A model generated the notes under the pieces. That model did not search any database, was not told where the DNA came from, and saw only the letters and a program-made list of their open reading frames with translations. A stretch of 60,307 nt of DNA from NCBI RefSeq assembly GCF_016901955.1, contig NZ_JACJLC010000013.1, positions 1-60,307 of the forward strand, in the 5' to 3' direction. The translations under genes and the position numbers were made by a program. Shown one piece after another: positions 18,710 to 60,307 of this stretch; the stretch's first letter is position 1; the number at the start of each line of letters is the position of its first letter. The DNA comes from Pseudoflavonifractor phocaeensis. Lineage in GTDB: Bacteria > Bacillota > Clostridia > Oscillospirales > Oscillospiraceae.

Positions 18710-18804
18710 GCATATTCAATTGACTGTGGCTATTTTACTGGCTTTTTCCCAGTATTTCAATAGACAAATAGACGAAAGTGTATAGGCCCCGCGGCGCTGT
18801 TCTG

Positions 18805-45592: not shown

Positions 45593-45936
45593 TAGACGTG
45601 GGGATTTTATCTGGGCTGGAACCGCCGGTCATGGTACTTAGATTCTGAGTTGTATAGTTCCGGGCGTGGGGAAAGCATCCACGAAATAGAATAGGCAGGT
45701 TACCGAGTTATTCAGTATCCTTGCTTACAAGAGCGAGGTGGGATGGGCGCAGTTCAAAATAAATCGAACCTTTCTGCTGCTGTCATTGACAGAGGCAGGA
45801 TCGCACCGGCCTCAGATAGACCGGCTTGTCCAGAAGAATTGGTACCAAAATTAGTACCTGAAGGCCCACGACAAAACTGAATACCCACCGTACAATGGCA
45901 TTGTAAAGGGATGTTTATACCAAAGGAGGCGAAAGT
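45593..45936 (+). other. Gap with two small palindromes
   Basis: No gene I can support. TACAATG-G-CATTGTA (45891-45905) is a perfect palindrome 31 bases ahead of the next ATG and may be an operator. GGTACCAA...TTAGTACC (45841-45858) is a looser one. A 45-codon frame (45743-45880) has no good start site. Confidence 0.45.
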
Positions 45937-46194: not shown

Positions 46195-46278
46195 GGCTTG
46201 TCTGAAATATGTCAACAAGCCTTAAGGATTCCGCGAGAGAAGAAAAGGCCTTGATTTTAGAAAGGAGAGCACGCTGCG

Positions 46279-47214
46279 ATGAAAAAGAGGACTGCGCTTT
46301 TGGCTCTGCTCCTGACCCTGGCGATGGCGGTTCCCGCCTCCGCCGCCTGGATCGCCGATCTGCCGGAGGACAACTGGGCCTATCCTTATGTGGATGCCCT
46401 GGTGGATCAGGGGATCATGACCGTGGACAGCGAGGGCAATTTTGGACCTGACGTCTTTACCACCCGCGCCGAGTTTATCTACTCCCTGTGGCTGGCCTTC
46501 GGCTCGCCCGACGCGGAGATTGACCGGACCTTCAACGACGTCCACCCATACAGCATCTACATCGAGGCGGTGGAGTGGGCCATGGACTGCGGCATCACCA
46601 CCGGCATTGGCAACAACAACTTCGGGCCTGACCTATACCTGTCCCGGGAGCAGGCATTCACCTTCCTGTACCGGGCCATGGACTATATGGGCTGCGCCCC
46701 CGGCTACGGCACAGGCAGTGAGTCCTACCGGCAGATTGCGGAGTTCCACGACTACGGGGAGATCGGCAGCTGGGCCCGGGATTCCATCCAGCTTCTGATG
46801 AACGTGGGCATTGTGGAGGGTACCGACAACGGCTACCTGATGCCCACGCGTGATCTGACCAACGCCGCCACCGCCGCCGTACTCTACCGTTCCCTGGCTT
46901 ACATGGGCATACTGGAAACTGGCCGGGGCGACTACTTCCCCGACGGAGGGAATGGCGCCGTCACCGCCGAGGACTTCTACGGTTGCTGGGAGTACGTCAA
47001 CACCGATGTGTGGCTGTGCATCTACGGCGACGGCACCTATGAATTCTACAACACCGAAGGCCTGGCGGATGCGGGCACCTATTACATGGACGGGGAGACC
47101 CTGCGCCTGAACAGCGGCATCAGTTTTGTGCTGGACCCGGCGGGAGAGGCCGGCTGGATCCTGGACAACAATGACGAGTATCTGTTTGCCTCCGAACTGC
47201 CCTTTGCCGGCTGA
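46279..47214 (+). CDS. SLH protein with one FYGCWEY domain; first gene of the surface array
   Basis: A 311-residue secreted protein. A signal peptide (LLALLLTLAMAVPASA) is followed by three SLH repeats (about 22-215; LPEDNWAYPYVDALVDQGIM, NFGPDVFTTRAEFIYSLWLA, EWAMDCGITTGIGNNNFGPD) and then one 80-residue FYGCWEY domain (from residue 230: AEDFYGCWEYVNTDVWLCIY, GDGTYEFYN, YYMDGETLRL, FASELP). SLH repeats bind wall polymer. The shared domain links it to the lipoproteins that follow, which suggests one anchored to the wall and others to the membrane. AAAGGAGAGC precedes the ATG. Confidence 0.82.
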   Translation: MKKRTALLALLLTLAMAVPASAAWIADLPEDNWAYPYVDALVDQGIMTVDSEGNFGPDVFTTRAEFIYSLWLAFGSPDAEIDRTFNDVHPYSIYIEAVEWAMDCGITTGIGNNNFGPDLYLSREQAFTFLYRAMDYMGCAPGYGTGSESYRQIAEFHDYGEIGSWARDSIQLLMNVGIVEGTDNGYLMPTRDLTNAATAAVLYRSLAYMGILETGRGDYFPDGGNGAVTAEDFYGCWEYVNTDVWLCIYGDGTYEFYNTEGLADAGTYYMDGETLRLNSGISFVLDPAGEAGWILDNNDEYLFASELPFAG

Positions 47215-47264
47215 TCTGGCGTCTGTCCGCGCATGGGCGGGCTGGAAAAAAGGGAGGACATGAC

Positions 47265-48557
47265 ATGAAAAGAATGAAGATGTGCGCGATCTTTGCCTGC
47301 TGCCTTACGCTGCTGCTGGCCCTCGCCGCCTGCGGCGGATCCAGCAGTTCCGATAAGTCCGACAGCTCCGGCAAACCTGACAGTTCCAGTGAGCCCGACG
47401 CCCCCCAGGGTTATGAGGGCACCTGGCGGCATGCGGACGGGGACACCGAGTACTGGCTGGAGCTGGGGGAGAACGGCCGGATCTTCCTATACGACGTGCA
47501 GTTCGACCTGGTCACCACCGGCTCCTGGGTGGAAACGGAGGAGGGCGTCATGGTAACACGGGAGTTCTCGGTGCCCTCGGATATGGAAGTTTCGGCAAGC
47601 ATGTTCGAACTGCCGCTGATTGACGACGGGGAGGGCGGCCTGACGCATGGGGGCGCCGATCTGCTCTTCATCCGGGCCGAGGACCTGGAGGTACCGCGGA
47701 CCACGGTGCAGACCCTCGACAGCTATCTCTGGATCGACCCGAAAAGTGAGTACGAGCTGTGCTTTTACTGGGATGGCTCCTGGGAGATCTATGACAGCGG
47801 GTACGAGGACCTGGTGGAGGGGGACGAGGACGGCACGGCCATCGACGGATACGCCATTACCCTCACCACCCTGGATGGGGAGGATCTGGAGCTGACCCTG
47901 TCGGAGGAGGGCACCCAGATCACCGGCTATCGCGATATGGTTTTTGTCCGCAGTGACATCCTGGCAGGCCGGGAGGACGAAGAAGGCGAATACGGCGAGG
48001 TGTACTGGGAGATATATGCCTACGCCTTCTACGGCTGTTGGGAGTATGAGAACTACTACGTCTGGGTCGATATCCGGGAGGACGGCACCTATGAGTGGGT
48101 GGATGGAGACAACGCCAGTTCCGGCAGTTACACCATGGAGGAGGATGAGTTGGTGCTGGACAACGGTCTGCGCTTTGTCGTGGACGGGGCAGGCGGCCTG
48201 ATTGACAGCGACGGCAACGCCCTGTTCCCCTCGACGCTGCCCAATGCCGATGAGGGTGCCGTCTCTCAGATCACCATCGCGGACTTCGTCGGATGCTGGG
48301 AGTACACGGCGTACGACAACTGGATCTGCATCTTCGGGGAGGGCTCCAGTTCCGGCACCTACGACTGGTACCAGATCGACGGCCTTGAATCCAGCGGCTC
48401 CTGCTACATGGACGGCGAGACGCTGTACCTGGAGGGCATAAACCTGGCCCTGACCCTGGACGGGGAAGGCGGCCTGATCGACAGCGACGGCGACACCCTG
48501 TTTGCCTCCCAGCTGCCGGACTCAGCTCCTAGGATCGCCGCCCTGTCCGCTGCGTAG
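47265..48557 (+). CDS. Lipoprotein with two C-terminal FYGCWEY domains
   Basis: A 430-residue lipoprotein: signal peptide, lipobox LAAC (cysteine about 23), Ser/Asp-rich linker, two related beta domains (GTWRHADGDTEYWLELGENG; ESYLWIDPKS-like region) and two FYGCWEY domains (about 250-326 and 338-420). The second carries FVGCWEYTAYDNWICIF. It is very acidic. The family of the repeat is unknown; a lipocalin-like small beta-barrel is possible. AGGGAGGACAT precedes ATG 47265. Confidence 0.75.
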   Translation: MKRMKMCAIFACCLTLLLALAACGGSSSSDKSDSSGKPDSSSEPDAPQGYEGTWRHADGDTEYWLELGENGRIFLYDVQFDLVTTGSWVETEEGVMVTREFSVPSDMEVSASMFELPLIDDGEGGLTHGGADLLFIRAEDLEVPRTTVQTLDSYLWIDPKSEYELCFYWDGSWEIYDSGYEDLVEGDEDGTAIDGYAITLTTLDGEDLELTLSEEGTQITGYRDMVFVRSDILAGREDEEGEYGEVYWEIYAYAFYGCWEYENYYVWVDIREDGTYEWVDGDNASSGSYTMEEDELVLDNGLRFVVDGAGGLIDSDGNALFPSTLPNADEGAVSQITIADFVGCWEYTAYDNWICIFGEGSSSGTYDWYQIDGLESSGSCYMDGETLYLEGINLALTLDGEGGLIDSDGDTLFASQLPDSAPRIAALSAA

Positions 48558-48602
48558 ATCCGGGCCAACAGGAGCGCAAACGCGTGTCAGAGAGGAAAGC
48601 GT

Positions 48603-49499
48603 ATGAAACGAAAGAAATTATCTGTACTGACGGCTTGCCTGGCCTTGCTGCTGGGCCTGCTGGCCGGCTGCGGCGGAGGCGATGACGCCGAGATCACCGC
48701 CGAGGATTTCTACGGCTGCTGGGAGTATGAAGCGTATGACCTTTGGCTGGTCGTCCATGAGGACGAGGCCTACGACTGGATCAGCCCGACGGACACCTCC
48801 TCAGGGACATACACCGTGGAGGATGGGGAACTGGTGCTGGACAACAGCATGCGCTACACCCAGGACGGGAAGGGCGGCCTGGTGGACAGTGACGGCGATG
48901 CCCTGTTCGCCTCGGAGTTGCCCGACACCTGGGACGACGAGGAGGGGCTCGGGGTGCCCGACTACGAGCCGGAGGTCAACGCCGAGGACTTCTATGGCGT
49001 GTGGGAGTACGCCAACCAGGATGTGTGGCTGTACATCCAGGGCGGCGGCACCTATGAGTGGATCAGTGAGTACAGCAGTCTCAGTGCCGGCTACTACATG
49101 GACGGCGTGGAGCTGTACCTGGACGGTCTGGGCTTGACTGTTTCTCTGGACGGGGAGGGCAACCTAATCGACAGCGACGGCGAACTGCTGTTTCCCTCGG
49201 AACTGCCCGACTTCTACTACGAATGGGACGACGAAGAGGACTACAGCCCCACCGTCACCGCCGAGGACTTCTACGGCTGCTGGGAGTACACCGACACCTA
49301 CACCTGGGTATGCATCTACGGCGACGGCACCTATGAGTGGTACGACTCGGACGGGCTGGATGTCATGGGCAATTACTACATGTCCGGCGACGAGCTGTGC
49401 CTGGAGGACAGCGCGATGACCTTTGCTCTGGACGGCTCCGGCGGCCTGGTGGACAGCTTTGGAGACACCCTGTTCCTCTCCGAGCTGCCCGAGTGGTGA
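48603..49499 (+). CDS. Lipoprotein of three FYGCWEY domains
   Basis: A 298-residue lipoprotein that is almost pure repeat. After the signal and lipobox (LLAGC, cysteine about 23) come three domains: AEDFYGCWEYEAYDLWLVVH, AEDFYGVWEYANQDVWLYIQ (cysteine lost) and AEDFYGCWEYTDTYTWVCIY, each ending in a GGLxDSxGDxLFxSELP-type motif. At DNA level the third is close to the domain at 46966, so recent copying is likely. GAGAGGAAAG precedes the ATG. Confidence 0.8.
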   Translation: MKRKKLSVLTACLALLLGLLAGCGGGDDAEITAEDFYGCWEYEAYDLWLVVHEDEAYDWISPTDTSSGTYTVEDGELVLDNSMRYTQDGKGGLVDSDGDALFASELPDTWDDEEGLGVPDYEPEVNAEDFYGVWEYANQDVWLYIQGGGTYEWISEYSSLSAGYYMDGVELYLDGLGLTVSLDGEGNLIDSDGELLFPSELPDFYYEWDDEEDYSPTVTAEDFYGCWEYTDTYTWVCIYGDGTYEWYDSDGLDVMGNYYMSGDELCLEDSAMTFALDGSGGLVDSFGDTLFLSELPEW

Positions 49500-49562
49500 T
49501 GGCCGCGGCCGGAGGAGATTTTCCCGGATACATCAGATAGATTTCTTAGGAGGAATGTGGAT

Positions 49563-50591
49563 ATGAAGCTGAGAAAGATCGGCGCGCTGTTTCTGAGCCT
49601 GGCTATGGCGCTCTCCCTGCTGGCCGGCTGCGGCGGCGGGAGCGAAAGCGAGAGCGAGGGCGAGGAGGATGGCCGGGGCGATGTGATCGAGAGCGACCCG
49701 GGGGACACCCTGGATGAACCGGAAGTCAACTTCGAGGACTTTGTCGGCTGCTGGGAGTACTGGGATTATGATATCTGGCTGTATGTCTACGGCGACGGCA
49801 CCTATGAGATGTACAACGCGGACGGCGACAGCACCTCTGGCAGTTACACGCCGGAGGGCACGGAAATCGTTCTGGACAGCGGCGAGCGTTTTGCCCTGGA
49901 CAGGGACGGCGGCCTCATCGACGGGGAGGGCGACGGGCTCTTTGCCTCGGAACTGCCCGACTTCACTCCGAACTACTACTTCGACGAGTATGAGATCGGG
50001 ATCAACTACGAGCTGGGCCAGGGGAATGCCACGCTGGAGGACGGCGCCTACTACTTTGAGATGAATACCGATGGCCAATACTACAATGTGGGCCCGCTGG
50101 TGTGCTCCGTGGATCTGGAGAGCGAGAGGGATCTGGGCAACGGCTATGTGGAGCGGATCGTCACCCTCTACCGGGGCTTTACCGAGGAGGACATCCCCAT
50201 GTTTACCATCGGCGTTTCCATGGGTGCCTCGTACCTGTTCTACGACTACTACACCGGCGTTCTCCTGCCGGACAACGACAACTTCGAGACCAGCGACGGG
50301 AGCTACTACTTCGCGTTCGACACCCCCGAGGGGGCGGTGGAACTGGACATCGGCGTGGAGAGCAGCCGGCGGAACGACGTGGAGGGCTACCGCAACATCT
50401 ATGCCGAAACCATCACCATCACGGCCCCCGACTGGTATGACGGACTGGTTTTGTCGGTCCCCACCCAGGCGGACACCTATGACGGGGTGAACGCGAGAGG
50501 CGAGGCCTTCGCTGCGCTGGACGACTATTATCCCGCCCTGGATCTGCCCTGGGATGCGGAAAGCGCCCTGAACTGCCTGGTTCTCTGGTGA
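49563..50591 (+). CDS. Lipoprotein with one FYGCWEY domain and a beta-sandwich part
   Basis: A 342-residue lipoprotein. Lipobox LLAGC (about 22), a Gly/Ser/Glu linker, then an FVGCWEYWDYDIWLYVYGDG domain (about 57-135) and a second domain of about 190 residues (YELGQGNATLEDGAYYFEMN ... ITITAPDWYDGLVLSVPTQA) of unknown type. The ATG at 49563 is preferred over GTG 49557: AGGAGG is nine bases upstream. Confidence 0.75.
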   Translation: MKLRKIGALFLSLAMALSLLAGCGGGSESESEGEEDGRGDVIESDPGDTLDEPEVNFEDFVGCWEYWDYDIWLYVYGDGTYEMYNADGDSTSGSYTPEGTEIVLDSGERFALDRDGGLIDGEGDGLFASELPDFTPNYYFDEYEIGINYELGQGNATLEDGAYYFEMNTDGQYYNVGPLVCSVDLESERDLGNGYVERIVTLYRGFTEEDIPMFTIGVSMGASYLFYDYYTGVLLPDNDNFETSDGSYYFAFDTPEGAVELDIGVESSRRNDVEGYRNIYAETITITAPDWYDGLVLSVPTQADTYDGVNARGEAFAALDDYYPALDLPWDAESALNCLVLW

Positions 50592-50619
50592 GGCGGAGCG
50601 GGAAAGGAGGCGCAAGCCT

Positions 50620-51717
50620 ATGAGAGGGAAAAAGTGCCTGCTATCCCTGCTTCTGTGTCTGGCCCTGCTCTCCGGCTGCGGCGGCACCGGGACGGGAGGA
50701 GAGAGTTCATCCCAGCCGACCTCTGCTCCAGAGATCTCCGCCCCATCGGTCTCCGACCCGGAGACCGGCGACGGACAGGAGGATGCCGGGAGCGCCGAGC
50801 CCCAGCCGGAGCAGTACCCCGAGGCCATGCCGGAGGACTTTGAGCTGGCGGTGGAGGATGTGCCGGAGCTGGTGCCAGACCTGCTGGGCATCCGGGAGCT
50901 GATCTATGAGGAGGAGCCCCTGTTTGCCAGCCAGGAGGAGGTGGCGGTCTACGCCCTTTGGAACCTGCTGTGGGGCCGCACGGAATTTGAGTGCCGCCTG
51001 ACCCGGGAGTTGGCCCCCAGCGACGGGGCGGGGCACGTGGTGCTGGACAGCGCCTGCACCGCCGCTATGTCCTACTACCTGTTCAGCGCCTATCACACCT
51101 GGGACATGTACATCCAGGAGGACGGCGACCCGGACAGCGTCTTCGCCCGGGTGGAGCTGCGGTACGAGCACCCGGAGTGGGATCTGGAGGCCAGGGCCGA
51201 GGCCCTGGAGTATGTGATGAAGAATCCGGCGCCCATCGGCGGCTTTGCAAGCTATGAGAGCGAGATGGAGTACGCCAGAGAGATCCACGACTATGTGGCC
51301 TGCCAGGTGACCTATGACCCCATGGGCTACGACCCCAACGATATGCTCTATTCCTCCAGATATGACTCTCTGCAGGAGGCCTACAACGTGCTGGGAGAGG
51401 GACAGGAGACGGCGGTCTGCGCCGCCTACGCCCGGGCCTTCGCCCTTATCGCCCACTACGCCGGCATCAACTGTGCCTGGGTGTGGGGCAACGAGACGGA
51501 GGAGAGCAGCCACGCCTGGAACGTGATCTACCCCTGCGACGGCAGCGAGCCGGTGCTGGTGGACGTGACCTGGGATGACAACATGAGCTGGGATGAACCG
51601 GGCCAGACTGAGGTGAGCGGCGCCTACTTCTACCTGCCCCTGTCCACGGAGATGGAGCATCAGGCCGACGCAAATATGGACGCGTTCCTGCGCTTTGTCA
51701 ATGAGGGGGTGGGATGA
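50620..51717 (+). CDS. Transglutaminase-like lipoprotein
   Basis: A 365-residue lipoprotein (LLSGC lipobox, about 20) with a long acidic linker and a transglutaminase-like core at about 195-345. The presumed triad is visible: Cys in ETAVCAAYARAFALIAHYAG, His in EESSHAWNVIY and Asp in VLVDVTWDD. It has no FYGCWEY domain. Such extracytoplasmic enzymes cut or cross-link proteins or act on peptides; here the neighbouring surface proteins are natural candidates. AAAGGAGGCGCAAG precedes the ATG. Confidence 0.85.
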   Translation: MRGKKCLLSLLLCLALLSGCGGTGTGGESSSQPTSAPEISAPSVSDPETGDGQEDAGSAEPQPEQYPEAMPEDFELAVEDVPELVPDLLGIRELIYEEEPLFASQEEVAVYALWNLLWGRTEFECRLTRELAPSDGAGHVVLDSACTAAMSYYLFSAYHTWDMYIQEDGDPDSVFARVELRYEHPEWDLEARAEALEYVMKNPAPIGGFASYESEMEYAREIHDYVACQVTYDPMGYDPNDMLYSSRYDSLQEAYNVLGEGQETAVCAAYARAFALIAHYAGINCAWVWGNETEESSHAWNVIYPCDGSEPVLVDVTWDDNMSWDEPGQTEVSGAYFYLPLSTEMEHQADANMDAFLRFVNEGVG

Positions 51718-51792
51718 CGACCAAAGGAGTCCCCGCGAAGCGGATGAACATATATGACCTGCAAAAAAATTAGACAAAAAGGAGGAATCACC

Positions 51793-52125
51793 ATGAAAAA
51801 GAAATTGAGTCTTGTTCTCGGCACGATCCTGGCCCTCTCCCTGTGTCTGCTGACCGCCTGCGGCGGCGACGACCCCGCACCCGAGGGCGCCTATGACAAC
51901 GACGAACTTGAGATGAGTATGGTATTCTTTGAAGACGGCACCTGTGAGGTTTCCGACTATTATGACTCGGCGGAGTGCGAGTTCAAGATGGACGGCGACG
52001 AGCTGACCATCGAGATGGACGGCATGGAAGTGACGGGCACCTATGACGCGGACGAGGACACCTTTACCATAGACGACAACGACGGCGAGTTCTACTCTGT
52101 GGGCGAGGCGTTCTACACGCCCTGA
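51793..52125 (+). CDS. Small lipoprotein with a Y-T-P-ending domain
   Basis: A 110-residue lipoprotein: signal with lipobox LLTAC (about 20), then one acidic beta domain (GAYDNDELEMSMVFFEDGTC ... GEFYSVGEAFYTP-stop). The same C-terminal domain ends the next two proteins. AAAAAGGAGGAATC precedes ATG 51793, so the longer frame from 51754 is rejected. Confidence 0.75.
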   Translation: MKKKLSLVLGTILALSLCLLTACGGDDPAPEGAYDNDELEMSMVFFEDGTCEVSDYYDSAECEFKMDGDELTIEMDGMEVTGTYDADEDTFTIDDNDGEFYSVGEAFYTP

Positions 52126-52133
52126 CCGCAGAT

Positions 52134-52165
52134 CTTGCTGGGGCGGCGGAAACCGCCCCAGCAAG
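52134..52165 (+). terminator. GC-rich intergenic hairpin 1
   Basis: CTTGCTGGGGCGG (52134-52146) and CCGCCCCAGCAAG (52153-52165) form a perfect 13-bp stem, without a T-run. Similar hairpins follow the next two Y-T-P genes; an mRNA-stability or partial-termination role is likely. Confidence 0.6.
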
Positions 52166-52208
52166 GCGATACACGGGATATATTCTGAACAAGGAAGGAG
52201 AAGCACAG

Positions 52209-53111
52209 ATGAAAAAGAAACTTTATAGTGTGTTTGTCATGGTGCTGAGCCTGGTCCTCTCCCTGAGCCTGCTGAGCGGCTGCGGCGGCAAGGAGTCCGT
52301 CAGCCTGGTTGGCGGCTGGGACAGCGACGACTATGAGCTGAGCCTGGTGTTCTATGAGGACGGCACCATGGAGATGTCCGAATCCCTCGGCTACGACACG
52401 ATGAACTATGAATGGGACGGCGAGACCCTGACGGTGGATTACGGCGGCGAGATCCTGGAGGGATTCCTGAATGATGACGGCAGCCTGGTGCTGGACGGTG
52501 ATGTTGTCTTTGTCCGGGTGGAGGAGATCAGTTACTATCCATCCGAAGACAGCGAGCCCATCCCCTTTGACATGACCGACACCGCATGGGATGCGGGGGG
52601 CATCATCTACAACTTCTACTCCGACGGCACCCTGATCATCGACGGGGAGTACCTTGGCAATTACGACTGGGACGGCTATTCCGGCACGCTCTACATCGAC
52701 GGCAGTTCTACCTCGATCTCTTACGACGGGGAGGATCTCTACATTGCGGGCGAAGACGGCGAGCTTTACCTGATGGACTACTACAGCGCGGCCGACTATG
52801 ACCTGTATGACGGGATGGCCGGCGGTGATGATAACGGCGACGAGGATGACGGCGGCGAGGAGCTGGCCGGCGCCTACGACAACGACGATGAGGAGATGAG
52901 CATCGTCTTCTACTCCGACGGCACTGTCGTCATGTCCGATTTCGAGTTCTCGGATGAGGGTACCTACACGGTGGACGGCGACTATATCCTGATGGAGTTT
53001 GAGGGTCAGTTCCCCTATGAGGCCTACTACGACTCCAGCGACGACAGCTTCCAGGTAGACGGCCTGGACGGATGGTTCTACTACGTCGACGAAGCCTGGT
53101 ACACTCCCTGA
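52209..53111 (+). CDS. Lipoprotein with three related acidic beta domains
   Basis: A 300-residue lipoprotein. Lipobox LLSGC (about 22); first domain GGWDSDDYELSLVFYEDGTM; a middle domain (DTAWDAGGIIYNFYSDGTLI); then a GAYDNDDEEMSIVFYSDGTV domain ending DEAWYTP at the C-terminus. The domains resemble each other, so it arose by internal duplication. GAAGGAGAAGCACAG precedes the ATG. Confidence 0.72.
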   Translation: MKKKLYSVFVMVLSLVLSLSLLSGCGGKESVSLVGGWDSDDYELSLVFYEDGTMEMSESLGYDTMNYEWDGETLTVDYGGEILEGFLNDDGSLVLDGDVVFVRVEEISYYPSEDSEPIPFDMTDTAWDAGGIIYNFYSDGTLIIDGEYLGNYDWDGYSGTLYIDGSSTSISYDGEDLYIAGEDGELYLMDYYSAADYDLYDGMAGGDDNGDEDDGGEELAGAYDNDDEEMSIVFYSDGTVVMSDFEFSDEGTYTVDGDYILMEFEGQFPYEAYYDSSDDSFQVDGLDGWFYYVDEAWYTP

Positions 53112-53126
53112 ACTATGAACCTCACC

Positions 53127-53150
53127 GTGGGCGGCTTTTGCCGCCCACGA
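53127..53150 (+). terminator. GC-rich intergenic hairpin 2
   Basis: CGTGGGCGGC and GCCGCCCACG form a perfect 10-bp stem around TTTT, 15 bases past the preceding stop. Confidence 0.6.
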
Positions 53151-53209
53151 CAAACATGACGGATCGCGGCGCTTTATGTGCTCTCGTTTTAAGAAGGAGG
53201 AGAAATGAG

Positions 53210-54448
53210 ATGAAAGGCAAACTGAGAATAACGCTGAGCCTGGCTCTGGCTCTGCTGCTGGCTCTGTGCCTTCTCACCGCCTGCGGAGACACCGGCAGCG
53301 ACAAAGCAAGCGACAGCGGTGGAGACCTCGCCGACGACGACGGCGTAGTGGGCCTGTGGGAGAGCGAGGAGTGGGGCGGCATCTGCCTGGAACTGCTCGA
53401 TGACGGCACCGGCACGATCTATACCTACAGCGACATGGGCGATCTCACCTATGAGTGGGACGGCAAGACCCTGACCCTCATAACCGTGGACGAGGACGAC
53501 GGTGAACTCGAGGAGACCACCGGCGAGCTGCAGGCGGACGGCTCCATCGGCATCATGGGTCTGGGATATTTCTTCCCGGTGGAGGAGCGCTCCTACGGCC
53601 CCGACATGGCGGGCAGCAGCTTCATGGAGGCCGGCGGCATGGAGGGCGAGCTGGAGGGGGACTGGATCCACAGCAGCGGCAACCGCATGCTGACCTTTGA
53701 CGGCAGCGGCTCCGTAACCTTCCAGGAGACGTATGAGGGCGGCAGCTCTTCCAGCTCCTCCGGCTGGTACAGCTATGACGGCCAGACCGTGACCGTCGAT
53801 ACGTCGGCGGGGATCGCCGAGGGCTATATCGACAGTATGGGTGACCTGATCATTGAGATCGATGGCGAGGGCGGCTGGTACAGCCCGGGGGACAGCTCCC
53901 AACTGACCTATCCCGACATCACCGGCCCGGAGGCGGAGATGGTGGGCCAGTGGGCGAACAGCTCCACCGGCGACTCCGTGGAGTTCACCAGCGACGGCTC
54001 CGTGGTGTACGCCATCGGCGGCAGTTTCGGCGTTGCCTCCCGCTTCACCTTTGACGGGGAGACGGTGACCTTCAGCGACTACACGGGCTATATCGACGGC
54101 GACGGCGACCTGATTGTGGAGGGCCTGGACGGCTGGTTCAGCCGCACCGAATCCTCCAGCAGCGGGGGCGAGAGCGACTCCGGCGATTCCAGTTACTCCC
54201 TGGGCGGCGCCTATGACAACGACGATGCGGAGGTCAGCATCGTATTCTACAGCGACGGCACCGTCACCATCTCTGACTACAATACCGCCCAGGACGGCAT
54301 CTATACAGTGGACGGCAGCTACGTCTGGCTGGAAATGGAGGGCACGGTTCAATATGAGGGCTACTACGACCCCTTCGCTGACATTTTCACGCTGGACGGC
54401 CTGGACGGCGAGTTCTACGCGGTAGACGATCCCTGGTACACACCCTAA
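53210..54448 (+). CDS. Lipoprotein with several acidic beta domains, Y-T-P end
   Basis: A 412-residue lipoprotein. Lipobox LLTAC (about 22). Domains in order: GLWESEEWGGICLELLDDGT, a GDWIHSSGNRMLTFDGSGSV domain, a GQWANSSTGDSVEFTSDGSV domain, a Ser/Gly linker and the shared GAYDNDDAEVSIVFYSDGTV domain ending DDPWYTP. AAGGAGGAGAAATGAG precedes ATG 53210; an upstream frame through the hairpin is rejected. It is the last lipoprotein before LemA. Confidence 0.72.
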   Translation: MKGKLRITLSLALALLLALCLLTACGDTGSDKASDSGGDLADDDGVVGLWESEEWGGICLELLDDGTGTIYTYSDMGDLTYEWDGKTLTLITVDEDDGELEETTGELQADGSIGIMGLGYFFPVEERSYGPDMAGSSFMEAGGMEGELEGDWIHSSGNRMLTFDGSGSVTFQETYEGGSSSSSSGWYSYDGQTVTVDTSAGIAEGYIDSMGDLIIEIDGEGGWYSPGDSSQLTYPDITGPEAEMVGQWANSSTGDSVEFTSDGSVVYAIGGSFGVASRFTFDGETVTFSDYTGYIDGDGDLIVEGLDGWFSRTESSSSGGESDSGDSSYSLGGAYDNDDAEVSIVFYSDGTVTISDYNTAQDGIYTVDGSYVWLEMEGTVQYEGYYDPFADIFTLDGLDGEFYAVDDPWYTP

Positions 54449-54458
54449 CGGCTGATCC

Positions 54459-54486
54459 CGCGGGGGCGGCAACCGCCGCCCCCGCG
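54459..54486 (+). terminator. GC-rich intergenic hairpin 3
   Basis: CGCGGGGGCGGC and GCCGCCCCCGCG form a perfect 12-bp stem around AACC between the last Y-T-P gene and lemA. No T-run follows, so lemA may still be read through. Confidence 0.6.
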
Positions 54487-54521
54487 CAGCCATACAAAGA
54501 GATAAAGCGGGAGGGAATGCT

Positions 54522-55073
54522 GTGTTTTTCTTTACATTTGATCTGTTCACCCTGCTCATCGGCGGGGCCATCGTCCTGGCAGTCCTCTGGGTTATCAGCA
54601 CCATCAACGGCTTCAAGCGCCGGGAGATCAAGATTGAGGAGGCCCTGTCGGGCATCGAGGTGGCGCTGACCAAGCGCTATGATATGCTCACCAAGCTGCT
54701 GGACACCGCCAAGGGCTTCATGGAGCACGAGAGCGACCTGTTCAGCCGGGTCATTGCCCTGCGCCACGGCATGAGCGTGGGGGAGATGGGCAAGGCCGAC
54801 CGGGAGATGAGCGAGCTCACCGGCCGCCTGTTCGCCGTGGCGGAGAACTACCCCGAACTGCGCTCCAGCGAGGTGTTCCTGGAACTGCAGCGGGGCATCC
54901 GGGACGCGGAGGAGCATCTCCAGGCCGCCCGGCGGCTCTATAACGCCAACGTCAGCAGCTACAACATCGCCATCGCCATGTTCCCCGCCAAGCTCCTGGC
55001 CAAGGGCCACAGCCCCAAGGAGTTCTATGACGCGGATGATGAGAAGCGCGGCGACGTGAAAATGCAGTTTTGA
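54522..55073 (+). CDS. LemA family protein
   Basis: A 183-residue membrane protein: one N-terminal helix (LLIGGAIVLAVLWVISTING), then the LemA helical bundle (EIKIEEALSGIEVALTKRYD, LLDTAKGFMEHESDLF, NYPELRSSEVFLELQRGIRD, ARRLYNANVSSYNIAIAMFP). LemA proteins occur beside DUF3137 and similar membrane proteins; their role is not established, though an envelope function is likely. GTG start with GGGAGG upstream. It separates the lipoprotein block from the DUF3137 block. Confidence 0.88.
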   Translation: MFFFTFDLFTLLIGGAIVLAVLWVISTINGFKRREIKIEEALSGIEVALTKRYDMLTKLLDTAKGFMEHESDLFSRVIALRHGMSVGEMGKADREMSELTGRLFAVAENYPELRSSEVFLELQRGIRDAEEHLQAARRLYNANVSSYNIAIAMFPAKLLAKGHSPKEFYDADDEKRGDVKMQF

Positions 55074-55134
55074 GGCTGTCCGATTCCCGAACCTCTGACC
55101 GGTGATCGGGGAGCGCGGGAAAGGAGCGTGGAAT

Positions 55135-56043
55135 ATGACAACAAAATATGGATCTGCTCAGGAGATTGACCAGCGGCTGCAGAAACTGGGCCGGCAGGGC
55201 CGGCTGGGGGGCAAACTGCTCGGGATAGGCCTTCTGATGGTGTTTGGCACTGCTATTTTGTACTCTGTTTTGGTGATGCTGGCCACGGACCTGCTGGAGA
55301 GTTTCGGTGCCATGTTCTTCGTGCCGGTGCCGGTCGGCTTTCTCATGATCATAATTGGCGCCGTGATCACGTCCAAAACCGGCCGTGAGCGCTCCCAAAT
55401 TCAGGACGCTTACATCCCGATCGCCCTCGATCAGGCCATGGACCGGGTGGACCAGTTCTGGGGCGCGACCCTGGATGAGCGCTATTTCAAGGAAGAGCTG
55501 GGCCTGCCCATGTTTGATGAGTGCAGCCAGTCCAGCTATTTGAAAGGGGTGCTTCGGGGCATCCCCTTGGAGATGAGCTGCTTCGTGCTGAAAAAGGAGA
55601 CCACCAAGGATGACGACAACCAGCCAAACTATGAGATCGCCTTCAGCGGACTTATGATCGTCTGCCGCCACACCATGGAGCTGAAGGAGGAGGGTTTTGC
55701 CTTCACCCAGTTCACCCGCTTCCTGGGCGGTATGAAGACCGAGAGCGAGGCGTTCAACAAGGCCTTCTCCATCTACGCCGAGGGCGGACTGGATGTGTTC
55801 CGCCTGCTGACTCCCCAGTACATGGAGCATCTGGTCTCCCTGCCCGAGGCCCGGGAAAAGGAGCTGGGCGTGCGCCTTTGCCAGGACGGCACCCTGCTGA
55901 TCGTGCTGGAGCACCGGAGGATCATCGTGGATAACGACGACATCACCACCGGGAGCGGCATGGTGGAGTACATGGCAGATCACATCCGGGGCATCGCGGA
56001 CACCATTGACTCCCTGGAGCTGCCCATCCAGCGGGAGGCCTAG
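55135..56043 (+). CDS. DUF3137 membrane protein, copy 1
   Basis: A 302-residue protein. A short helix (SAQEIDQRLQKLGRQ) and two transmembrane segments (about 30-85) precede a soluble DUF3137 domain (FSGLMIVCRHTMELKEE, TESEAFNKAFSIY, FRLLTPQYMEHLVSL, GTLLIVLEHRRII). The ATG at 55135 has AAAGGAGCG upstream. It pairs with lemA as in other genomes. The function is unknown. Confidence 0.85.
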   Translation: MTTKYGSAQEIDQRLQKLGRQGRLGGKLLGIGLLMVFGTAILYSVLVMLATDLLESFGAMFFVPVPVGFLMIIIGAVITSKTGRERSQIQDAYIPIALDQAMDRVDQFWGATLDERYFKEELGLPMFDECSQSSYLKGVLRGIPLEMSCFVLKKETTKDDDNQPNYEIAFSGLMIVCRHTMELKEEGFAFTQFTRFLGGMKTESEAFNKAFSIYAEGGLDVFRLLTPQYMEHLVSLPEAREKELGVRLCQDGTLLIVLEHRRIIVDNDDITTGSGMVEYMADHIRGIADTIDSLELPIQREA

Positions 56044-56080
56044 GACTTCAGCCGGCAGGATACAAAAAGGAGTGAGACAG

Positions 56081-56725
56081 ATGACCGGAACAGCGAAGGT
56101 GTCCCGTGCCATGGATCGAAAACATGCGGGGCGATTCTGGGGAAGCCTCTGTATGCAATGGGCGATCTTTTGCTGCCTGACCCTTGCGCTGTTGCTGCTG
56201 GCCGGCTGCAGTGGAAGGAACGAAAATGAGAAAAGCGGCGGGGTGAGACCGGACGGCAACGGAATACTGGGCGGCGGCGCGGAGGAGGACGGCGGCGGCG
56301 CCGAGGACTTCTATGGCTGCTGGGAATATGCGGATTGGGACTACTGGCTGACGGTCTATGATGACGGCACCTACACGCTGCTGGATGGGGCCGGCGACGG
56401 CGTCACCGGCGGCTACTACATGGAGGACGGCACCCTGTGTCTGGACGACGGCAGTTTCTGTTTCACCCTGGACGGGGCGGGCGGCCTGGTGGACAGCGAC
56501 GGCGACGCCCTGTTCCGCTCCAGCCCGCCTGATACGGCTGAGGACTCTAACGGCTGGGAGGATCCGGATGACTGGGAGGAGCCCAGCGGTTGGGAGGATC
56601 CGGACATTCAGCAACTTGGGGCCGGGGCGGAGGAATTTTATGGCTGCTGGGAGTACCAGTATGCAGACGAGTGGCTCTATGTCCGGGATGACGGCACCTA
56701 TATGTGGTACGACGCGGACGGATAG
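56081..56725 (+). CDS. Truncated lipoprotein with one and a half FYGCWEY domains
   Basis: A 214-residue lipoprotein whose signal (IFCCLTLALLLLAGC) starts late, after about 30 charged residues. It holds one full domain (AEDFYGCWEYADWDYWLTVY, about 74-150), a Trp/Asp/Pro-rich linker (NGWEDPDDWEEPSGWEDPDI) and a second domain that ends abruptly after WYDADG at the stop (56723-56725). The loss coincides with a junction to DUF3137 sequence, so a deletion has cut it. AAAAGGAGTGAGACAG precedes the ATG. Confidence 0.7.
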   Translation: MTGTAKVSRAMDRKHAGRFWGSLCMQWAIFCCLTLALLLLAGCSGRNENEKSGGVRPDGNGILGGGAEEDGGGAEDFYGCWEYADWDYWLTVYDDGTYTLLDGAGDGVTGGYYMEDGTLCLDDGSFCFTLDGAGGLVDSDGDALFRSSPPDTAEDSNGWEDPDDWEEPSGWEDPDIQQLGAGAEEFYGCWEYQYADEWLYVRDDGTYMWYDADG

Positions 56726-57123
56726 TCTGTCAGCATAACCTCGATTTGCAGGACGATTTCAGCATCTCCCAGTACACAACGTATATCGGAGGGAACGCCG
56801 TCCGCACCGAAAGCGAGGCGTTCAACAAGGCGTATTCCATCCGCGGAAATGACGGGCACAGCATCTTCTATCTGCTCACCCCGCACTACATGGAAAAGCT
56901 GCTGGCCCTCTCGGATGAGATCGGCAAGCGCCTCGCCATGCAATTCCGGAGAGACGGCAAGCTGCTGCTTTGCATCAGCGGCCTGGATTTGTTTGAGGTG
57001 CAGGAGGCCGGTTCCGCGGCCGAGCTTCAAAAGCAAATCGAAGGGGAGATGGATTTCCTCGGGAAGATACTGGAAACGCTGGAGGTTCCCACCCAGGAAC
57101 AGTTGGAGGCCAAAAGAAGGTGA
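56719..57123 (+). pseudogene. DUF3137 remnant lacking its N-terminal half
   Basis: The frame from about 56719 encodes only the second half of DUF3137 (RIVCQHNLDLQDDFSISQYT, RTESEAFNKAYSIRG, FYLLTPHYMEKLLALSDEIG, EVPTQEQLEAKRR). It aligns from IVCRH of copy 1. Membrane segments and the first half are missing, and there is no Shine-Dalgarno at the junction. Adjacent lipoprotein coding is cut at the same place. Confidence 0.8.
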
Positions 57124-57160
57124 ACCTACTCCGGTTCCGAAAGAAAGGAGGAGAAGGAAG

Positions 57161-58405
57161 ATGGGTGAGAGACAGACAGGGCCCACAGACCGGGAGATGA
57201 AGAAGCTGATGGGGATGAAACGCACCGCCCGCTGGAGCCGGGCGGCGATGATCGCGAGCATTGTTTTGCTGTTTGGCTTTCCGATCCTGTGCAGCGCTTT
57301 GAGAATAGATATTCCGGGCCTCGTGTTCGTCGCCCTGTTTCTGCTGATGTTCCTGATGCTCATAGTGAGTGAGATCACGAAGGGGCGGGCCAAGAAGAAA
57401 CAGGCGGCTATGGGGGTGTCCCGCACCCCCGACGAGCTGGAGGCGGATCGGAAGAAGGCGGAGAAGGTGAGCCGGTTGGCCGCCTCGCCGGAGGCGGTGG
57501 ACCGCCGGCTGGCCCGGCTGGCCGGGCTGAACCGATTCTGCCAGTGGAACCTCCGCGCGGGGGTGGCCGGCATGCTGCTGGCCGCCGTGGCGGCCCTGAT
57601 CCACCAGTTTGTGACGGAGCTGCCGATCCCCCTGGTCGTGGTCCTAGCCATCGTCACCTCTATATTCATCGTGGTGGGCGTGCTCGGCAGCTTGTGGGTG
57701 AAGAAAAAGCAGAAGGACCTGTCCCTCCACTACACCCCAAAGGTGCTGGAGGCCGTGCTGGACCGGGTGGATCTGTACGATCACAGGGGCAGCGTGGACC
57801 ACGGCTATCTGTGGGAGGACTTCAGCTACCCCGGGCGGGAGTGGGTGGGCCCCTGCGGCGACCATGTGAAGGGCGTGCTGAAGGGGATGCCCATCGAGTT
57901 CAGCGAGTTCTGTTTCCAGTATGAAACTGTGGAGCGGGACAAGGACGGCAAAACGACCAGAGAGGTCCACACCTCCTTCAGCGGCATGATGGTAATCAGC
58001 CGCCACGGCTTCCGGCTGAATAACAAGGTCACCCTGACCCAGTTCTCCCACTTTCACCATGCCCTGGGGACGGAGAGCGTGGACTTCAACAGCGCCTGGT
58101 CCATCAGGGAGGATGCGGGGCAGGACGCCTTCTACATCCTCACCCCCCACTACATGGAGGAACTGATAGCGCTGGACCAGGACAAGTGGATGAAAATGGG
58201 CATCCAGTTCCGGCCCGACGGCACATTGCTGATCGTGATGCAGGATGTGGACTTCTTCGAGGTGGATGAGGCCAAGAGCACGGAGGAGCTGAAGGAGAAA
58301 CTGAAAAACGAGCTTTTGGGCCTGGCGGACACCATGGAGCGGATCGGCGCCGTCACTCTGGAGGAGATAGCGGCGCAGCAGGAGGAAGGTGAAGGGGCGA
58401 CATGA
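57161..58405 (+). CDS. DUF3137 membrane protein, copy 2, extended N-terminus
   Basis: A 414-residue protein. An extra N-terminal part (1-100) has two helices (AAMIASIVLLFGFPILCSAL; LVFVALFLLMFLMLIVS) and a basic linker. A second helix pair (about 135-185) and the full DUF3137 domain follow (FSGMMVISRHGFRLNNKV, FYILTPHYMEELIALDQ, GTLLIVMQDVDFFEV). The duplicated membrane part is unlike copy 1. AAGGAGGAGAAGGAAG precedes ATG 57161. It overlaps the next gene by four bases. Confidence 0.82.
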   Translation: MGERQTGPTDREMKKLMGMKRTARWSRAAMIASIVLLFGFPILCSALRIDIPGLVFVALFLLMFLMLIVSEITKGRAKKKQAAMGVSRTPDELEADRKKAEKVSRLAASPEAVDRRLARLAGLNRFCQWNLRAGVAGMLLAAVAALIHQFVTELPIPLVVVLAIVTSIFIVVGVLGSLWVKKKQKDLSLHYTPKVLEAVLDRVDLYDHRGSVDHGYLWEDFSYPGREWVGPCGDHVKGVLKGMPIEFSEFCFQYETVERDKDGKTTREVHTSFSGMMVISRHGFRLNNKVTLTQFSHFHHALGTESVDFNSAWSIREDAGQDAFYILTPHYMEELIALDQDKWMKMGIQFRPDGTLLIVMQDVDFFEVDEAKSTEELKEKLKNELLGLADTMERIGAVTLEEIAAQQEEGEGAT

Positions 58406-59454
58406 AAAAACGAAAACAGACATCAGAGGAGTACACAGGCCCCCGCTGCCCCAAGTGCCGTGCGCCCCTGCCCGCCGGCGCCAGCCGCTGCACCCGGTGC
58501 AACACCCTGCTGGATCCGGATACCGGCCAGGTGCGCGACAAGCTCACCGAGGCGGATATGGTGGAGCTGGTGGACGCCAGCCGGCGGGCACGGACGAAGG
58601 GCATCGTCAAGACCGTGATCGGCATCCTGATCATGCTCCTGGCCCTTCTGCTGACAGAAGATAAGGAAGGCGGCTTACTCTACAGCGCGGGGGTCATCGT
58701 CGCCGTCATCGGGGGCGGGTTCCTGTGCGTCGGGCTTATCACCCTGAAGGGGTACAAGGGGCACATCAAGGAGCAGCTCAGCCGCTCAGTGGTGCCCCAG
58801 GTACTCTCGGAGATCTTCGATGATGTGGAGTACGACGCCTACCGGCATATCTCCCCCGAGGTAATCCACGCCAGCGGCGCCTTCCCATTCGCCTATGACA
58901 AGGTCAGCGGCGGCGACTATATCAAGGCCAGCTACCGGGGCGTGGGCCTGGAACTGTGCGACCTAATGCTGGAGGAGGAGGTCCGGACGACCAGCACCGA
59001 CAGCGACGGCAACAGCACCAGCGACACCAGCAACAGGATCGTGTTCGTGGGCCAGTGGCTCATTCTGGACTTCCACAAGGAGCTGTCCGCCGACCTGGGG
59101 GTTTTTGAAGGCCTGCGGAAGCAGTATGACCAGATTGAGACGGAGAACGCTGAGTTCAACAAGCGGTACGGCATCTCCTGCGACAGCGTCCACGACGCCT
59201 TCTACATCCTCACCCCCAACATGATGGAGCACATCATGGCCATGGACCGGCGGGCGGGGGGCAAGGTCTATCTCCGCTTCCTGCGGGAGGGAAAGATCCA
59301 TGTGGCGGTACACTCCCGCCGGGATCACTTCGAGGTGGGCAACCTGAATGACGCCGATCTGGCCACCCTGCAGCTGAAGTTCCGCAGTGAGGTGCGCTAT
59401 GTCACAGAACTCATCGACGCCCTGCTGGCGGTGGACACCTTGTATAAGCAGTAG
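58402..59454 (+). CDS. DUF3137 membrane protein, copy 3, with zinc ribbon
   Basis: A 350-residue protein. It opens with a zinc ribbon (CPKCRAPLPAGASRCTRC), then two transmembrane segments (about 73-120) and a DUF3137 domain (NRIVFVGQWLILDFHKEL, FYILTPNMMEHIMAMD, VYLRFLREGKIHVAVHSRRD). The ATG overlaps the previous stop (ATGA), so translation is coupled. Zinc-ribbon-plus-membrane layouts are seen in other envelope scaffold proteins. Confidence 0.82.
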   Translation: MKKRKQTSEEYTGPRCPKCRAPLPAGASRCTRCNTLLDPDTGQVRDKLTEADMVELVDASRRARTKGIVKTVIGILIMLLALLLTEDKEGGLLYSAGVIVAVIGGGFLCVGLITLKGYKGHIKEQLSRSVVPQVLSEIFDDVEYDAYRHISPEVIHASGAFPFAYDKVSGGDYIKASYRGVGLELCDLMLEEEVRTTSTDSDGNSTSDTSNRIVFVGQWLILDFHKELSADLGVFEGLRKQYDQIETENAEFNKRYGISCDSVHDAFYILTPNMMEHIMAMDRRAGGKVYLRFLREGKIHVAVHSRRDHFEVGNLNDADLATLQLKFRSEVRYVTELIDALLAVDTLYKQ

Positions 59455-59537
59455 AAAGACGGCAGTCCGGCTGATGCGATGGGGCCGCAGCCCGGCGGCA
59501 AACAGCGGAAGGCACAACAGAAAGGCAGGAAGGTACT

Positions 59538-60307
59538 TTGCGTGATAAAAACGGGATGGCCCCTACAAATCAGGTGGAACAGGATCTGGAGCAGCGGCTC
59601 GAGAAGGTCAGGAGGAACAGCAAGACGGGCGTGGTTTTCATGGTGGCCGGCGGCGGCGCCACTATGCTGAGCCAGCGGCTGATGGCTCAGGAGGGCGTGT
59701 TCATCGTTCTGGGGCTGGTGGCCATGCTCGCCGGCTGGCTGGTTTTGGGGATCGGCATTGCGGCCCAGTACAGCGCCCGGAGGGAAATGCGAAACTATCT
59801 GGGCGGGGCGGTGATCCCGCCGGTGCTCTCCCAGGTGTTTGAGGAACTGGAGTATGAGAAGAACGGATACATCGACGGCGGCCTGATCAAGAGCGTCGAT
59901 ATGCCCTTCCCCTTCCGGTTTGACGACGTGATCGGCAGCGACCATGTGCGGGGCACATACCGGGGCGTCCATGTGGAACTGAGCGACATCCGGCTGGAGA
60001 CGGTGTTCGCCTACACCGTGACCGACGACGACGGCAACACGCAAACAAAGGAACGGCGCAATACGGTGTTCCAGGGCCAGTGGATCATTCTGGACTTTCA
60101 CAAGGAACTGTCCGCCGACCTGTGCGTGTTTGAGGGCGGGCGGAAGCGCTCCGGTCAGATCGAAACGGAGAACGCCGCCTTCAATGAGAAATTCGGCATC
60201 TCCTGCGACAGCGCCCACGACGCCTTTTACATCCTCACCCCCCACATGATGGAGCACATTTTGACGATGGATCAACGGGCGGGAGGCGACATCTACCTCC
60301 GCTTCCT
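59538..60307 (+). CDS. DUF3137 membrane protein, copy 4, cut by window edge
   Basis: About 256 residues are visible from TTG 59538 (start RDKNGMAPTNQVEQDLEQRL, AGGAAGG just upstream; ATG 59556 is the alternative). Two transmembrane segments (AQEGVFIVLGLVAMLAGWLV) precede a DUF3137 domain very close to copy 3 (QGQWIILDFHKELSADL, FYILTPHMMEHIL, IYLRFL at the edge). No zinc ribbon. The gene continues beyond 60307. Confidence 0.8.
   Translation, partial: MRDKNGMAPTNQVEQDLEQRLEKVRRNSKTGVVFMVAGGGATMLSQRLMAQEGVFIVLGLVAMLAGWLVLGIGIAAQYSARREMRNYLGGAVIPPVLSQVFEELEYEKNGYIDGGLIKSVDMPFPFRFDDVIGSDHVRGTYRGVHVELSDIRLETVFAYTVTDDDGNTQTKERRNTVFQGQWIILDFHKELSADLCVFEGGRKRSGQIETENAAFNEKFGISCDSAHDAFYILTPHMMEHILTMDQRAGGDIYLRF

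What the first reader, a model, noticed from the sequence alone, without database searches (positions are those of the whole stretch)
46279..60307. LemA/DUF3137 surface lipoprotein array, possible undescribed system
Seen: co-directional, closely spaced genes for one SLH protein, eight lipoproteins (one transglutaminase-like), LemA and four DUF3137 membrane proteins plus a fragment. Two private repeated domains run through the secreted members. Known: LemA and DUF3137 proteins are often neighbours, with no settled role. Inferred: the membrane part may assemble, secrete or sense the wall- and membrane-anchored repeat proteins; the transglutaminase may process or cross-link them.
Basis: partly seen in the sequence, partly recalled or inferred. 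Interest (0 to 1): 0.78.

Follow-up and report, generated by a model that had tools for sequence, protein, structure and literature searches.

The report
Conserved LemA–DUF3137 surface-lipoprotein gene cassette
A gut bacterium carries a long row of genes for proteins anchored on its surface, next to genes for two widespread but unexplained membrane proteins; some related bacteria keep similar genes together, so the row is probably a real but undescribed cell-surface system.

Summary
The array is real. Window 45937-60307 holds, all on the + strand, one SLH protein, eight lipoproteins (one with a transglutaminase triad), one LemA, four DUF3137 proteins (the last cut by the contig end) and a chimeric DUF3137 fragment. 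The 'private' domains are two related forms of a DUF5640-like domain. A recurring cassette is supported: regulator, DUF2442-like gene, transglutaminase lipoprotein, lipoproteins, DUF3137, LemA, DUF3137. At least one such partner lies beside LemA in 11 of the 18 LemA loci closest to the window's and in 1 of 62 others (split chosen afterwards). The window's DUF5640-type trio and SLH protein were not found in those loci, and linkage is loose elsewhere. By charge bias, LemA and DUF3137 soluble parts face the cytoplasm. A confident DUF3137 model has mycobacterial TtfA, an export-accessory protein, as its only outstanding PDB match, at borderline significance. Best reading: a cytoplasmic-face scaffold helping to export, place or turn over a co-encoded surface set. 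Composition and recurrence are shown; mechanism is inferred.

The parts
45868..45896 (+). promoter-like site (ACGACA-17-TACAAT) 40 bases upstream of the DUF2442-like ORF; weak
   Evidence: consensus scan only: 9 of 12 matches; 9 sites on both strands of the region against 4.0 (sd 2.0) expected
   Evidence: counterparts in L002, L016, L020, L035, L043, L046, L050, L051, L053, L056, L060 (and a weaker one in L110); no Pfam match for the window copy, three relatives match PF10387 below cut-off
46279..47214 (+). SLH-domain secreted protein with one FYGCWEY domain
   Evidence: (PF00395 1.2e-22)
47265..48557 (+). lpA lipoprotein, two FYGCWEY domains
48603..49499 (+). lpB lipoprotein, three FYGCWEY domains
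49563..50591 (+). lpC lipoprotein: one FYGCWEY domain plus a C-terminal domain (lpCC) shared with array lipoproteins of other genomes
50620..51717 (+). TG lipoprotein, transglutaminase-like, Cys267/His298/Asp315 present
   Evidence: PF01841 4.1e-9; 59% identical to L051 TG
51793..52125 (+). lpD lipoprotein, DUF5640-like (below cut-off)
   Evidence: (21.9 bits, cut-off 28.5)
52126..52175 (+). strong GC-rich hairpin after lpD
   Evidence: z -5.7 (folded with DNA energies)
52209..53111 (+). lpE lipoprotein, DUF5640 domains
   Evidence: PF18692 4.2e-9, 36.6 bits, cut-off 28.5
53112..53165 (+). strong GC-rich hairpin after lpE
   Evidence: z -5.3
53210..54448 (+). lpF lipoprotein, DUF5640 domains
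   Evidence: PF18692 6.9e-7, 29.5 bits
54449..54500 (+). strong GC-rich hairpin after lpF
   Evidence: z -6.5
54522..55073 (+). LemA, one N-terminal TM helix, helical domain predicted cytoplasmic
   Evidence: PF04011 4.9e-40; profile of A5 matches PDB 2etd at 2.4e-24
55135..56043 (+). DUF3137 protein d1, two predicted TM
   Evidence: (PF11335 2.3e-13)
56081..56725 (+). lpG lipoprotein, truncated inside its second FYGCWEY domain
56704..57123 (+). d2: 5'-truncated DUF3137 fragment joined onto lpG (deletion or assembly join)
   Evidence: (PF11335 1.4e-19)
57161..58405 (+). DUF3137 protein d3, four predicted TM
   Evidence: (8.5e-13, tested from 57179)
58402..59454 (+). DUF3137 protein d4, zinc-ribbon-like N-terminus, two predicted TM
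   Evidence: (9.3e-29; Zn_Ribbon_1 below cut-off), (model pLDDT 92, pTM 0.83)
59538..60307 (+). DUF3137 protein d5, cut by the contig end; one TM over the hydropathy cut
   Evidence: (6e-21)

Best explanation
This is a member of a conserved but apparently undescribed envelope cassette. Outside the cell, lipid-anchored and S-layer-anchored proteins carry one kind of small DUF5640-like domain, together with a lipid-anchored transglutaminase-type cysteine enzyme that cross-links or clips them. Inside, LemA and several DUF3137 proteins form a membrane-anchored scaffold on the cytoplasmic face, used in the way TtfA is used with its transporter, that marks or assists the sites where the surface set is exported, placed or removed. 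In some relatives a MalT/LuxR-type regulator heads the cassette; the window's contig has no such gene. Shown: composition, co-direction, recurrence beside one LemA clade. Predicted: topology and the DUF3137 fold. Inferred only: the scaffold role and what the transglutaminase does.
For: LemA-anchored scan with no lipoprotein in the query: 66 of the 80 named loci kept have DUF3137 within 1.5 kb of LemA on the same strand, and 11 of the 18 closest have at least one partner gene (FYG, lpCC, DWR or LPN lipoprotein, TG, regulator, DUF2442-like) on that strand against 1 of 62 others, nominal Fisher 3e-8. Window-only queries find FYG domains in L043, L046, L054, the lpC C-domain in L050 and TG in L050 and L051. 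L046 has regulator, DUF2442-like, LPN x2, a DWR+FYG+lpCC lipoprotein, DUF3137, LemA, DUF3137 in order. The 11 array LemA rows on the tree (window plus 10 of the 11 loci) lie in one 24-row set, support 98/93. L045: a DWR-domain lipoprotein fused to a transglutaminase (PF01841 9.8e-10) directly before LemA-DUF3137. Topology: more K/R after than before the LemA TM in 88 of 92 sequences, 4 ties (some genomes in twice). DUF3137 d4 model pLDDT 92; top PDB match TtfA 6t84, Foldseek E 1.3e-3, probability 1.00, TM 0.57 on the target, next hit E 0.09.
Against: No experiment. The 18/62 split was chosen, and the DWR, LPN, DUF2442-like and regulator profiles were built partly from these loci. The DUF5640-type lipoproteins lpD-lpF have no counterpart in the 80 loci by profile or by lpE as query, and no SLH+FYG protein was found there, so a good part of the window's array is not shared. 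Linkage is loose: of 9 other genomes with the FYG domain, 6 (G104, G106, G184, G229, G240, G327) are not among the DUF3137-positive ones and a seventh (G256) has it on another contig. The G018, G143, G248 and G335 arrays lack LemA; G018 has one elsewhere. 7 of the 18 closest loci show no partner gene, though L047 and L049 are cut at the relevant end. Hairpins after lpD, lpE, lpF suggest more than one transcription unit. The TtfA match is just over E 0.001, with rmsd 6.8 and 11% identity, and no sequence relation was found. One paper passage puts the LemA C-terminal domain outside (PMC3905215), against the charge bias.
Confidence: 0.38

Rival explanations
1. Surface sensing relay: the lipoproteins are ligand-binding receptors, and LemA/DUF3137 pass their state to the cytoplasm, where the MalT/LuxR-type regulator changes expression.
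For: The regulator profile matches upstream of the lipoproteins or LemA in L002, L016, L020, L046, L051 (partial, contig edge), L056 (shortened) and L060; the L046 copy has GerE and TPR matches over cut-off and an AAA match below it; soluble parts of LemA/DUF3137 face the cytoplasm; d4 has a zinc-ribbon-like N-terminus (below cut-off).
Against: The window contig has no such regulator; own-genome matches are 33% and 28% identical on C202 and a weak 23% one on C2. No protein with a receptor-like outside domain, TM and inside domain was seen.
Confidence: 0.2
2. Two independent neighbours: a common LemA-DUF3137 pair of general envelope function, beside an unrelated lipoprotein expansion that happens to sit there.
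For: LemA-DUF3137 without partner lipoproteins is the commoner case among the 80 loci; a lipoprotein array without LemA/DUF3137 on its 18-kb stretch exists (G327); the window's DUF5640-type trio is not shared; hairpins follow lpD, lpE and lpF.
Against: Partner enrichment of 11 of 18 against 1 of 62, placement of array LemAs in one 24-row set, a similar order in L046, L056 and L060, and a domain-transglutaminase fusion beside LemA-DUF3137.
Confidence: 0.22
3. Interbacterial or phage-defence surface locus: multi-copy lipoproteins act as immunity, decoy or exclusion proteins with LemA/DUF3137 as membrane partners.
For: Patchy distribution (DUF3137 in 27 of 400 family genomes), paralogue expansion, lipoprotein anchoring.
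Against: No PADLOC match for the 10 of 16 array proteins tested; no relative confirmed in viral contigs for the LemA and FYG queries; no toxin or nuclease family over its Pfam cut-off among the 16 proteins.
Confidence: 0.07

Closest known systems
LemA family (PF04011; T. maritima 2etd; MamQ of magnetosomes)
   Same: Pfam and PDB sequence match, one N-terminal TM, helical domain
   Different: MamQ is called the only member linked to a process (magnetosome membrane biogenesis, PMC4902198 passage, 2016); no lipoprotein cassette is known to me there
DUF3137 (PF11335)
   Same: Five stretches over the cut-off; TM helices plus a C-terminal domain
   Different: No function found in the searches made; here four copies and a fragment are stacked with surface proteins
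TtfA, accessory protein of the MmpL3 mycolate exporter (PDB 6t84)
   Same: Predicted fold similarity of the cytoplasmic domain; membrane anchor and cytoplasmic C-terminus (PMC6593404 passages)
   Different: One TM helix against two; no sequence similarity found; no MmpL-type transporter among the 16 array proteins by Pfam
DUF5640 (PF18692) lipoprotein domains
   Same: lpE and lpF pass the cut-off; the FYGCWEY domain is profile-related
   Different: The FYGCWEY domain itself has no Pfam match and is repeated up to three times per protein
Transglutaminase-like superfamily (PF01841)
   Same: Over the cut-off, Cys-His-Asp triad
   Different: Lipid-anchored and embedded in the array; substrate unknown

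Membership tests
LemA family | PF04011 over curated cut-off | tested here: met
   137.2 bits, cut-off 26.2
LemA family | single N-terminal TM helix followed by the conserved helical domain | tested here: met
   TM 8-26 by hydropathy; profile A5 matches 2etd at 2.4e-24
DUF3137 | PF11335 over curated cut-off | tested here: met
   d1, d2 fragment, d3, d4, d5: 48.8 to 100.5 bits, cut-off 26.1
TtfA family | sequence homology to TtfA | tested here: not met
   no 6t84 among profile matches to PDB sequences up to E 1 (A4) or E 10 (A6)
TtfA family | TtfA 'atypical' fold | tested here: inconclusive
   Foldseek E 1.3e-3, probability 1.00, TMt 0.57, TMq 0.32, rmsd 6.8
TtfA family | partner of an RND lipid exporter | not tested
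   no whole-genome search for MmpL-like genes was made
DUF5640 domain | PF18692 over curated cut-off | tested here: met
   lpE 36.6 and lpF 29.5 bits as whole proteins, cut-off 28.5; lpD 21.9 fails; FYGCWEY proteins have no match. In the genome search single lpE stretches score 25.8 and 25.3, below the cut-off
Transglutaminase-like superfamily | PF01841 over cut-off and Cys-His-Asp triad | tested here: met
   37.1 bits, cut-off 23; Cys267, His298, Asp315 read
DUF2442 | PF10387 over curated cut-off | tested here: not met
   window copy no match; three relatives 15.7-22.8 bits, cut-off 23.9; hence 'DUF2442-like'
known anti-phage defence systems | PADLOC model match | tested here: not met
   10 of the 16 array proteins tested, 0 matches

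The most novel reading that the evidence does not exclude
LemA and DUF3137 form a general bacterial counterpart of the TtfA export-accessory module, on the cytoplasmic side of an envelope export or assembly site, and this cassette is a dedicated version that carries its own surface cargo, a processing transglutaminase and, in relatives, its own regulator. That would give two widespread unexplained families a function.
Probability: 0.2. Interest if true: 0.85.

Novelty: new variant of a known kind. Interest (0 to 1): 0.55.

Why it matters
LemA is widespread, and only MamQ was tied to a process according to PMC4902198 (passage read). DUF3137 appears in only 2 papers of the open library searched; the one I opened has it as a table entry. 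A cassette that ties both to a defined set of surface proteins, an enzyme and a regulator gives named cargo and partners to test, and the TtfA-like fold prediction gives a concrete mechanistic lead.

Tried and rejected
Chance neighbourhood: weakened, kept as a rival. Phage- or plasmid-borne element: 117 and 12 pattern matches in viral contigs, none confirmed as a LemA or FYG relative; LemA relatives in 91 plasmid records are all under 60% identical. Known defence system: no PADLOC match for the 10 proteins tested. L037 as strong fusion evidence was rejected: its transglutaminase match is below the cut-off (E 0.014) and it lacks the Cys at the aligned place. The lpC structure (4 rows, pLDDT 50) is too poor; its fold search was uninformative and is not used. 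L043's apparent SLH similarity came from the FYG domain; Pfam finds no SLH in that lipoprotein. The lpCC counts (5 of 400 genomes, 4 beside DUF3137) are biased, since the rows of A3 all came from DUF3137 loci; I rest on the LemA-anchored scan and the window-only queries instead. LPN and DWR profiles showed no relation to FYG. The terminator scan (9 found, 7.4 expected) carried no signal. PMC7818093 was opened for a supposed LemA mention and had none. ORF coordinates in relatives come from my own simple caller, not from annotation, and some of its gene picks are wrong-frame; the profile searches were run on all ORFs of 50 or 60 aa and more.
Full report
WHAT IS THERE. The window is an entire contig (C25) of a 3.5-Mb, 292-contig genome. 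The finding's genes exist as described: an SLH protein, eight lipobox proteins, one LemA, four DUF3137 proteins and one DUF3137 fragment, all on the + strand. The gaps that I read run from 28 to about 100 bases, and d3 and d4 overlap by 4. The last gene is cut by the contig end. LemA has one place in the genome, DUF3137 five and the FYGCWEY domain nine, all in this array. The genome's family includes MAGs titled Oscillospiraceae: I infer this from equal contig lengths (49374, 37101 and 128439 bases; two more, 71793 and 8203, are titled Clostridiales), not from a named record of the window itself.

CORRECTIONS. The array begins at 45937, not 46279: an 85-aa ORF there is the counterpart of a small DUF2442-like gene found in L002, L016, L020, L035, L043, L046, L050, L051, L053, L056 and L060. 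Pfam's DUF2442 matches three relatives tested, all below the cut-off, and not the window copy. The FYGCWEY profile A2 matches 10 of 400 family genomes, own included, several weakly (E about 1e-5). DUF5640 itself was found in 1 of 23 other genomes tested (G016).

IS THE LINKAGE REAL? In the genus, DUF3137 occurs in 2 of 19 other genomes (G018, G019). In a 400-genome family sample (own included) DUF3137 occurs in 27 and the FYG domain in 10. Both occur in 4 (G000, G018, G143, G256; Fisher 0.0026, or 0.016 without the window), adjacent in three and on different contigs in G256. G018, G248 and G335 carry a MalT/LuxR-like regulator, a DUF2442-like gene, two to five lipoproteins and one or two DUF3137 genes in a row, without LemA beside them; G143 has one lipoprotein and two DUF3137 genes. 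LemA was matched in 16 of 29 DUF3137-bearing genomes. The least biased test starts from LemA alone: a scan of named genomes with LemA alignment A5 kept the best 80 of 330 confirmed places. DUF3137 lies within 1.5 kb on the same strand in 66 of 80. A partner signature (FYG, lpCC, DWR, LPN, TG, regulator or DUF2442-like) lies on the same strand in 11 of the 18 closest loci and in 1 of the other 62 (Fisher 3e-8). That value is nominal: the 18/62 split follows the order of the table and was set, and the DWR, LPN, DUF2442-like and regulator profiles were built partly from these same loci. The window's own proteins, without those profiles, find FYG domains in L043, L046 and L054, the lpC C-domain in L050, and TG in L050 and L051 (L051 1.1e-124); weaker TG matches appear in L045, L066 and L113; lpE finds nothing. 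The DUF5640-like profile likewise matches none of the 80 loci, and no SLH+FYG protein was found in them, so those parts of the window's array are not shared. On a LemA tree of 80 rows (79 loci plus the window) the 11 array rows all fall in one 24-row set with support 98/93, though not as one clean clade: the tree needs 8 changes, against a shuffled mean of 10.5 (4 of 500 shuffles as low). L053, whose LemA is split over two ORFs, is not on that tree.

CONSENSUS CASSETTE. L046 (Clostridium sp. MAG) shows the fullest order: regulator, DUF2442-like gene, two LPN lipoproteins, a lipoprotein with DWR, FYG and lpCC domains, DUF3137, LemA, DUF3137. Its regulator has GerE (LuxR) and TPR matches over the cut-off and MalT-TPR and AAA matches below it. 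In L045 a DWR domain and a transglutaminase domain share one lipoprotein directly before LemA and DUF3137. In G103 an lpC-type C-domain and a DUF5640-like domain share one lipoprotein, on a 5.6-kb contig without a DUF3137 match. In G327 an array has an SLH protein with an LPN domain, a triple-FYG lipoprotein and a DWR lipoprotein, with no LemA or DUF3137 on the 18-kb stretch. The consensus order is put together from loci that each hold only part of it; the TG gene, for instance, is beside LemA in L050 and L051 but not in L046. FYG, LPN, DWR, lpCC and TG are my labels, not published names.

TOPOLOGY AND FOLD. In 92 LemA sequences (some genomes appear twice, once through each fetch) the 15 residues after the TM hold on average 3.6 K/R against 0.5 in the 12 before it; 88 favour a cytoplasmic C-terminus, 4 are ties, none the reverse. 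Among 109 DUF3137 ORFs, 60 show two TM helices by a simple hydropathy cut, with positive flanks on both ends (3.8 and 4.0 K/R) and few in the loop (0.8); 40 show one, 9 other numbers. Hence both soluble parts are probably cytoplasmic, while lipoproteins and the SLH protein are outside. The d4 model from 55 rows has pLDDT 92 and pTM 0.83. Its best PDB match is TtfA 6t84 (E 1.3e-3, probability 1.00, TM 0.57 on the target and 0.32 on the query, 11% identity, rmsd 6.8); the next is at E 0.09, and none is at or below 0.001. TtfA is membrane-anchored with a C-terminal domain that appears cytoplasmic, interacts with MmpL3 and is needed for TMM transport (PMC6593404, abstract and other passages). A review says its structure showed no obvious lipid pocket and cites the structure paper, whose title speaks of an 'atypical fold' (PMC7458404, passages; the structure paper itself was not read). 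No sequence relation was found. This is a lead, not a membership claim.

MECHANISM. Best supported: a cytoplasmic-face LemA/DUF3137 scaffold serving export, placement or turnover of a co-encoded surface set that includes a cross-linking or clipping enzyme. The chain from fold and topology to function is inference. Rivals are a sensing relay, independent neighbours and a defence role; see those fields. Hairpins with z below -5 follow lpD, lpE and lpF but not the three other gaps tested (the remaining gaps were not folded), so expression may be staged in several units.

LITERATURE. In the open library, 'DUF3137' occurs in 2 papers, 'DUF3137' with 'LemA' in 1, as separate table rows, and 'DUF5640' in none. 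MamQ is called the only LemA member linked to a cellular process (PMC4902198 passage). No description of such a cassette turned up in the listings, of which 39, 58, 59, 77 and 98 showed only the top 15 of 21, 12 of 407, 10 of 332, 10 of 18 and 8 of 970 papers; subscription journals and preprints are not covered.

VERDICT. A real, recurrent, apparently undescribed cassette around two known but unexplained families, with a variable cargo; mechanism open.

Noticed in passing
window 56704-56725: Chimeric junction: lipoprotein lpG breaks inside a repeat domain and continues into the middle of a DUF3137 gene; deletion or assembly join.
   Followed up: partly
window 52126-52175, 53112-53165, 54449-54500: Strong GC-rich hairpins without a T run after each of the three DUF5640-type lipoprotein genes.
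   Followed up: partly
window 44275-44390 (+): Rfam DUF3268 RNA motif (RF02966, 72.2 bits) upstream of a DUF3268 gene (44593) and a sigma-factor-like gene (45050), just left of the array.
   Followed up: no
window 18617-18711 (-): SAM riboswitch (RF00162, 77.8 bits).
   Followed up: no
L054 3948-4520: A second, more distant LemA lies inside an array locus, beside a DWR+FYG+lpCC lipoprotein.
   Followed up: no
L047 and L119: LemA of an 'Akkermansia' MAG and of a 'Bacteroides' MAG sits among Clostridia sequences on the tree: misbinning or transfer.
   Followed up: no
BFVD A0A8S5UBB5 (Caudovirales sp. ctcT39): An uncharacterised phage protein matches the DUF3137 model (Foldseek E 3.5e-8, probability 1.00, TM 0.45 on the target).
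   Followed up: no
L033 9315-10217 (G327): A further secreted lipoprotein lies between the triple-FYG lipoprotein and the SLH+LPN protein; it reminded me of the RsiV/DUF3298 type, recalled and not tested.
   Followed up: no
own genome C202: Two neighbouring MalT/LuxR-like regulators, 33% and 28% identical to the cassette regulator of L046, lie on another contig.
   Followed up: no
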